This document shows, piece by piece, positions 44,351 to 44,481 of a stretch of 64,000 bases of DNA (positions within the stretch are counted from its first letter, which is position 1; each line of letters starts with the position of its first letter). The position numbers and the translations under genes are program-made. The notes below the pieces were generated by a model. That model was not told where the DNA came from. It searched no databases and saw nothing but the letters and a program-made list of their open reading frames with translations. This stretch comes from a virus. The stretch spans positions 1 through 64,000 of the IMG/VR virus record IMGVR_UViG_3300009506_000016, one strand, 5' to 3'.

Positions 44351-44481
44351 TCTGGTAATGTATTTGATCACCATGTTTAGCGTCTTAACCACTTAGACCA
44401 CACGGAGCCTCGGCTCACAGGTTGGGATTCGAACCCAAATATCTCTGCCCAAGTCAGATAACAGTGATCTTCCGTACCAGA
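44351..44481 (-). repeat. RNA domain U3 (encloses a second permuted tRNA-like pair)
   Basis: P1 TCTGGTA/TACCAGA (44475-44481 with 44351-44357); P2 GATCACTG/TGGTGATC (44462-44469 with 44366-44373, 8 pairs); TTATCT at 44456-44461. Confidence 0.7.
44379..44457 (-). tRNA. Permuted tRNA-like sequence, anticodon TTG as drawn, acceptor imperfect
   Basis: 3' half 44457-44412, 2-base spacer, 5' half 44409-44379. Joining gives D-stem GTCT/AGAC, anticodon stem CTCTG/CAGAG created by the join, 7-base loop ACTTGGG, variable ATAT and T-stem TTGGG/CCCAA. The ends pair only as GGCTC/GAGCC with unpaired bases below, so the acceptor is not canonical, and position 33 is C. It could be degenerate, edited, or a tRNA mimic. 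Confidence 0.45.

What the first reader, a model, noticed from the sequence alone, without database searches (positions are those of the whole stretch)
44351..44481. Second domain with reversed tRNA halves and an imperfect acceptor
In U3 the 3' half (44457-44412) again precedes the 5' half (44409-44379), spacer 2 bases. Joining creates anticodon stem CTCTG/CAGAG, with D-stem GTCT/AGAC and T-stem TTGGG/CCCAA. The break point differs from U2 (anticodon stem instead of D-stem). The acceptor pairs only GGCTC/GAGCC with an unpaired stretch below, which suggests decay, editing, or a mimic.
Basis: partly seen in the sequence, partly recalled or inferred. Interest (0 to 1): 0.72.

Follow-up and report, generated by a model that had tools for sequence, protein, structure and literature searches.

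The report
Phage Y RNA with tRNA-like domain
The 'reversed tRNA halves' are not a broken tRNA gene but the tRNA-mimicking domain of a small Y RNA, one of six in a row that this phage encodes together with its own Ro60 ring protein; this kind of RNA is already known from bacteria and phages.

Summary
Six such units lie in tandem (U1-U6, 44724-43901), about 4.3 kb upstream of a phage Ro60 (TROVE) gene on the same strand (39625-37973). A covariance model built only from 20 YrlA-like Y RNAs of other Ro60-bearing viruses finds this unit as the best hit of the whole window (41.2 bits, E 2e-11), with U2 second (40.9 bits). In those 20 homologues the T-stem, the 7-bp capped acceptor and the D-stem are kept by compensatory changes. 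The permuted order (T-acceptor-D) is therefore the normal topology of YrlA-type Y RNAs, already known as a circular permutation of tRNA. It is not a permuted tRNA gene needing splicing. The 'imperfect acceptor' is a capped hairpin with one mismatch and one bulge. The break point does not clearly differ from U2. Likely role (inferred): binds the phage Ro60, with the tRNA-like domain acting as tether, gate or tRNA decoy. New, divergent member of a known kind. Separately, other phages carry the converse permutation: native-order tRNAs with a Y stem in the anticodon arm.

The parts
44351..44481 (-). U3: YrlA-type Y RNA (the finding)
   Evidence: P1 TCTGGTA/TACCAGA, P2 GATCAC/GTGATC, GGTACG, GTTATCT; top hit of independent model R1, 44350-44483, 41.2 bits, E 2.1e-11
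44444..44458 (-). U3 anticodon-arm-like hairpin TCTG-ACTTGGG-CAGA
   Evidence: contiguous 4-bp stem with 7-nt loop; appears in the constrained fold; weakest of the arms
44422..44438 (-). U3 T-arm TTGGG-TTCGAAT-CCCAA
   Evidence: compensatory changes in homologues
44401..44421 (-). U3 capped acceptor-like hairpin CCTGTGAGC-CGAG-GCTCCGTG (one bulge, one mismatch)
   Evidence: the 7-bp capped acceptor is conserved in homologues
44382..44398 (-). U3 D-arm GTCT-AAGTGGTTA-AGAC
44496..44639 (-). U2: YrlA-type Y RNA, permuted full cloverleaf
   Evidence: R1 40.9 bits, E 2.5e-11; Rfam YrlA RF02553 21.9 bits, below the gathering score; ARAGORN circular only, 0/500 shuffles
44657..44724 (-). U1: short Y RNA without tRNA-like domain
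   Evidence: P1 GCGGTA/TACCGC, P2 AGTCG/CGACT, GGTACG..GTTATCT
44148..44229 (-). U4: short Y-like unit (GTTATC motif degenerate)
   Evidence: P1 9 bp, P2 9 bp
44052..44130 (-). U5: short Y-like unit with GTTACC
   Evidence: P1 8 bp, P2 6 bp
43901..44038 (-). U6: Y RNA with a T-loop-bearing insert, possibly tRNA-like in native order
   Evidence: P1 7 bp, P2 9 bp, GGTACG..GTTATCT; the tRNA-like fold is not significant
37973..39625 (-). phage Ro60 (TROVE + Ro60 vWA); the likely start is ATG at 39592, the 11th codon of this ORF
   Evidence: PF05731 2e-34, PF25045 1.9e-45; Deinococcus Rsr 2NVO 3.4e-95; DVSGSM and TDSET kept
44834..44862 (-). perfect sigma-70 promoter TTGACA-17-TATAAT upstream of the array
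   Evidence: 12/12 consensus match; a consensus match only
48335..49813 (-). phage RNA ligase (context, not part of the RNA)
   Evidence: PF09414 3.4e-11; phrog_968 1e-54

Best explanation
The unit is a YrlA-type Y RNA of a phage Ro60 ribonucleoprotein system. Shown: its outer stems, conserved motifs and permuted tRNA-like domain match Y RNAs that sit beside Ro60 genes in other viruses, and the same phage encodes Ro60. Inferred: the array is transcribed from the promoter at 44862-44834; the GGUACG/UACC stem is bound on the rim of the phage Ro60 ring; the tRNA-like domain, whose acceptor end is capped and so cannot be charged, faces outward as a tether or gate that couples Ro60 to a 3'-5' exonuclease such as host PNPase, as known for Deinococcus. 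The phage would use this to steer RNA decay or RNA quality control during infection. My split: identity as a Y RNA 0.95, binding to the phage Ro60 0.85, exonuclease tether as its main role 0.5.
For: Ro60 gene in the same record, same strand. Six tandem units with P1 6-9 bp and P2 6-9 bp whose sequences differ but still pair. A blind scan of viral contigs for GGTACG..GTTATCT..GGTTCGAAT gave 3 contigs; in 2 of them the unit lies next to a Ro60 gene. In 84 distinct Ro60 loci the Y motif occurs 0.200 per kb within 3 kb of Ro60 against 0.0136 elsewhere, 112 of 116 on the Ro60 strand; the reversed motif gives 11 near and 10 far. Model R1, built without window sequence, puts U3 and U2 first in 64 kb; 666 kb of unrelated viral DNA gives at most 20.7 bits. 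Covariation in 20 homologues: 13 of 16 pairs have compensatory changes. Same RNAs beside Ro60 in named phages Sparky, Sebata, FuzzBuster and Forza (87-99 bits). Literature: YrlA is a circularly permuted tRNA mimic (PMC11472068) and tethers Rsr to PNPase (PMC8394870); a Listeria phage expresses abundant RNAs near an Rsr gene that its authors suggest are Y RNAs (PMC12282133).
Against: Rfam's curated YrlA model does not reach its gathering score (U2 21.9 of 69 bits; U3 no hit at E up to 5), though the named phages also stay below it. Tandem real tRNA genes can give R1 scores up to about 38 bits, mostly over positions 47-100, so the margin of 41 bits is modest; the Y stem and the absence of contiguous tRNAs here carry the rest. 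The array is 4.3 kb from Ro60, whereas most homologues are within 1 kb. No expression or binding data. U3's own fold energy is not special.
Confidence: 0.85

Rival explanations
1. It is the same Y RNA, but its main job is to be a tRNA decoy or inhibitor: the uncharged tRNA-like domain soaks up tRNA-cutting host defence nucleases or tRNA-modifying enzymes, with Ro60 protecting it.
For: The authors of PMC7790460 propose that the YrlA tRNA-like domain may competitively inhibit the anticodon nuclease. Six copies, different tRNA-like sequences in U2 and U3, and an RNA ligase gene 4 kb away would fit a counter-defence role.
Against: Three of the six units (U1, U4, U5) have no tRNA-like domain; the U3 anticodon arm is weak; no nuclease target is known.
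Confidence: 0.25
2. A true permuted tRNA gene: the transcript is cut and religated (perhaps by the phage RNA ligase) into a working tRNA, as in some algae and archaea.
For: U2 gives a full cloverleaf when circularised; an RNA ligase is encoded nearby.
Against: The acceptor strands are joined by only 2 bases in U3, with no room for mature ends or CCA; ARAGORN does not find U3 when circularised; the stems around the halves match the Ro60-binding stem of Y RNAs and co-occur with Ro60.
Confidence: 0.03
3. Debris of a tRNA array: 3' half of one decayed tRNA gene next to the 5' half of the next.
For: Tandem tRNA genes give the same T-arm then D-arm order and can score with model R1; two intact tRNA genes lie nearby.
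Against: No matching other halves upstream or downstream (ARAGORN with and without inserts finds no tRNA in 43470-44900). The closing stems and Y motifs recur in all six units, and capped acceptors covary in homologues.
Confidence: 0.03

Closest known systems
YrlA (Y RNA-like A), Rfam RF02553; Salmonella YrlA, PDB 6CU1
   Same: Ro60-binding stem formed by the RNA's ends; T-arm, capped acceptor and D-arm in circularly permuted order; encoded with Ro60/Rsr (PMC8394870, PMC11472068)
   Different: Below Rfam's gathering score; GGUACG/AUUACC instead of the commoner GGGCCG/CUUGCCC; an extra anticodon-like hairpin before the T-arm; six units in tandem, 4.3 kb from Ro60
Y RNAs of Ro60-bearing phages (e.g. 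Sparky, Sebata, FuzzBuster, Forza; Listeria phage CKA15)
   Same: Same RNA topology within a few hundred bases of the phage Ro60 gene (PMC12282133 for CKA15)
   Different: Protein only 37-41% identical; fewer units in most; not annotated in the four records looked at
Permuted tRNA genes of algae and archaea
   Same: 3' half precedes 5' half
   Different: No sign of a splicing element or of mature tRNA ends; halves are part of a Y RNA stem

Membership tests
YrlA-type Y RNA | Ro60 orthologue encoded by the same genome | tested here: met
   ORF 37973-39625(-), TROVE and Ro60 vWA, Rsr 2NVO 3.4e-95
YrlA-type Y RNA | Ends pair into a stem with the conserved Y motifs (RGNNCGR ... GGTTAYC) | tested here: met
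   GGTACGG..GTTATCT with P1 7 bp and P2 6 bp or more in U3; the base before GTTATCT is T in U3 and U6, not G
YrlA-type Y RNA | tRNA-like domain in the order T-arm, capped acceptor, D-arm | tested here: met
   R1 full-length match 1-134, 15 of 16 consensus pairs kept
YrlA-type Y RNA | Binds Ro60 and carries tRNA-type modifications (D, pseudouridine) | not testable with these tools
   needs biochemistry
Rfam RF02553 as curated | Score at or above the gathering score of 69 bits | tested here: not met
   U2 21.9 bits; U3 no hit. Forza 52.1, Sebata 37.4, Sparky 36.6, FuzzBuster 33.3 also fail, so the cut-off excludes phage Y RNAs in general
Permuted tRNA gene | Joined halves give a complete tRNA with 7-bp acceptor and space for mature ends | tested here: not met
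   2-nt spacer, imperfect acceptor, ARAGORN circular negative for U3 at default settings
Permuted tRNA gene | Mature tRNA observed | not testable with these tools
   needs RNA sequencing

The most novel reading that the evidence does not exclude
Phage Ro60 loci carry one Y-RNA/tRNA chimera in several circular permutations: Y end open and acceptor capped (YrlA; U2 and U3 here), native-order tRNA body joined to the Y stem through its acceptor (L194, L198, perhaps U6), and, in other phages, native-order tRNAs with an open acceptor, some with encoded CCA, whose anticodon arm is replaced by a tetraloop-capped Y stem (L204, L213, L191, L141, L124). The last form would be an undescribed class of tRNA that could be both processed like a tRNA and bound by Ro60.
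Probability: 0.35. Interest if true: 0.65.

Novelty: new member of a known kind. Interest (0 to 1): 0.33.

Why it matters
It removes a false lead (permuted or edited phage tRNAs) and replaces it with a testable system: a phage that encodes its own Ro60 and a six-member Y RNA array, divergent enough to be missed by the standard RNA library. What Ro60/Y RNA particles do for phages is unknown. The arrays, their covariation and the converse permutations in relatives give material to ask whether the tRNA-like domain acts as tether, gate or decoy.

Tried and rejected
DNA similarity search of the array against annotated phages: no match. First viral scan with three short motifs returned mostly chance hits; 80 of those loci (L005-L084) became the covariance-model control and all 119 the control of the stem descriptor. 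A loose stem descriptor gave unconvincing hits in most Ro60 loci, because their Y stem reads GGGCCG/CTTGCCC rather than GGTACG; a motif relaxed accordingly solved this. ARAGORN at low threshold: rejected as evidence, most shuffles pass. Fold energy z-scores of U3, U6 and the T-arm element upstream of Ro60: not significant. Search for close relatives of the window to look for compensatory changes in U3 itself: only a 37% relative of a neighbouring gene, without a Y unit in the held stretch. Primary papers on YrlA (Chen 2014, Wang 2018) are not held (for the first); they are cited through papers that quote them.

Full report
What is there. On the minus strand between 44724 and 43901 six units follow each other. 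Each begins with a stem whose core is GGTA and ends with the matching TACC (P1: U1 GC|GGTA, U2 AAGT|GGTA, U3 TCT|GGTA, U4 AATAA|GGTA, U5 ATTC|GGTA, U6 CGC|GGTA, each with its own pairing 3' strand), followed by CG, a second stem of different sequence in each unit (P2), and GTTATCT, GTTACC or a degenerate form. GGTACG-N4-24-GTTATCT occurs four times in the window against 0.01 expected, all here. The finding's coordinates are exactly the P1 ends of U3.

The tRNA halves. U3 holds T-arm, then a hairpin in the place of the acceptor, then D-arm. A 2-nt loop GAGCC-GA-GGCTC is not feasible, so the hairpin is GAGC-CGAG-GCTC, extended by three more pairs with one bulge and one mismatch. A contiguous 4-bp, 7-nt-loop hairpin before the T-arm stands where an anticodon arm would be, so no joining is needed to form it, and U2 and U3 appear to be opened at the same place (between D-arm and anticodon arm). 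Circular-mode ARAGORN finds a cloverleaf in U2 at default settings (0/500 shuffles), not in U3.

The partner. ORF 37973-39625 on the same strand is a Ro60: TROVE 2e-34, Ro60 vWA 1.9e-45, Deinococcus Rsr 3.4e-95, with the metal-site motif DVSGSM kept. Ro60 binds Y RNAs. Rfam's YrlA model aligns to U2 in the order T-arm, acceptor hairpin, D-arm, at 21.9 bits, below its cut-off.

Independent tests. (a) A scan of 2.9 million viral contigs with GGTACG..GTTATCT..GGTTCGAAT, without reference to Ro60, returned three contigs; two carry Ro60 right beside the units, the third is a record without Ro60 in the held part. (b) Ro60 relatives are encoded in 356 viral contigs. Around 84 distinct ones the Y motif RGNNCGR-N6-22-GGTTAYC is 15 times denser within 3 kb of Ro60 than further away, nearly always on its strand and mostly upstream; the reversed motif shows no such excess. 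Some near-duplicate loci remain in that count. (c) Dozens of units near Ro60 have the permuted T-acceptor-D order. Twenty of them, none from the window, were aligned: 16 consensus pairs, 13 with compensatory changes, the seven acceptor pairs kept in 138 of 140 cells. (d) A covariance model of these 20 finds U3 (44483-44350, 41.2 bits, E 2.1e-11) and U2 (40.9 bits) as the best two hits in the window; the two real tRNA genes score at most 8 bits. Unrelated viral DNA, 666 kb, reaches 20.7 bits. Adjacent real tRNA genes reach up to about 38 bits, which is the main limit on specificity; there are no such tRNAs at U2/U3. (e) Named phages Sparky, Sebata, FuzzBuster and Forza have unannotated hits of 87-99 bits near their Ro60 genes, the same places that Rfam YrlA marks below its cut-off; Sinorhizobium phage Phosso gave none in the stretch held.

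How it most likely works. Inferred from the family: Ro60 holds the P1 stem, and the tRNA-like domain extends outward. YrlA is a circularly permuted tRNA mimic (PMC11472068 on PDB 6CU1), a substrate of tRNA-modifying enzymes, and part of a Ro60-Y RNA-PNPase machine that degrades structured RNA (PMC8394870). A decoy for tRNA-cutting nucleases has also been proposed (PMC7790460). A perfect sigma-70 promoter lies upstream of the array (44862-44834). None of these functional steps was tested here.

Novelty. YrlA in phages is on record (PMC12282133 and PMC7765460, citing Chen 2014 and Sim and Wolin 2018). This is a divergent new member in an unusually long array. A side finding may be new: in Ro60 loci of other viruses ARAGORN finds native-order tRNAs with 28-92 nt inserts in the anticodon arm that carry the Y motif; in several the Y stem is capped by a tetraloop (L204, L213, L141, L124), and some have CCA. 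Those are the converse permutation of YrlA. ARAGORN can also join neighbouring real tRNAs, so each case needs inspection; I inspected five or six by eye. I found no description of them in the papers available, which do not include the main Y RNA papers.

Noticed in passing
L204:3507-3632, L213:7590-7718, L191:7541-7664, L130:9443-9567 and 9573-9703, L127:9309-9456, L141:7934-8070, L152:7000-7121, L157:7697-7866, L124:148-276 and 286-416: Native-order tRNA-like genes with free acceptor ends (some with CCA) whose anticodon arm is extended by a Y-RNA stem, in several capped by a GCAA-type tetraloop; nearly all within 1 kb upstream of Ro60. Converse circular permutation of YrlA.
   Followed up: partly
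L153:6408-6548, L194:9988-10128, L198:1795-1918 and 1928-2069; window U6 43901-44038: Y RNAs with a native-order (D, anticodon, T) tRNA-like insert joined to the Y stem through the acceptor; ARAGORN linear finds L194 (Ile) and L198_1795 (Cys), 0/780 shuffles.
   Followed up: partly
window 39625-39680 (-): Just upstream of the Ro60 ORF: a perfect T-arm on an AACGGTT/AACCGTT stem with almost nothing between (acceptor-T minihelix). Could be a regulatory tRNA mimic in the Ro60 leader.
   Followed up: partly
window 44725-44835 (-): Leader of the array, between promoter and U1: hairpin TCGCTTGT/ACAAGCGA enclosing about 55 nt, perhaps a degenerate seventh unit.
   Followed up: no
window 44230-44350 (-): Spacer between U3 and U4 with two strong hairpins (GCTCACCGGTGAGC; GTGGGTGATAGGCGCATCACCCAC), purpose unknown.
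   Followed up: no
window 43848-43885 (-): Hairpin GCCCGGTGGGT/ACCCACCGGGC at the end of the array whose loop holds a T-run and CACCTCCTT (complement of a Shine-Dalgarno sequence).
   Followed up: no
window 48335-49813 (-): RNA ligase gene (PF09414, phrog_968) 4 kb upstream of the array; possible functional link to RNA repair.
   Followed up: no
named phages Sparky (L230:2079-2211), Sebata (L228:2157-2300), FuzzBuster (L227:2190-2320), Forza (L226:5184-5313 and 4978-5104): YrlA-like RNAs that are not annotated in the records; in Sebata one overlaps an annotated hypothetical protein, and the second Forza one overlaps annotated tRNA-Gln genes.
   Followed up: partly
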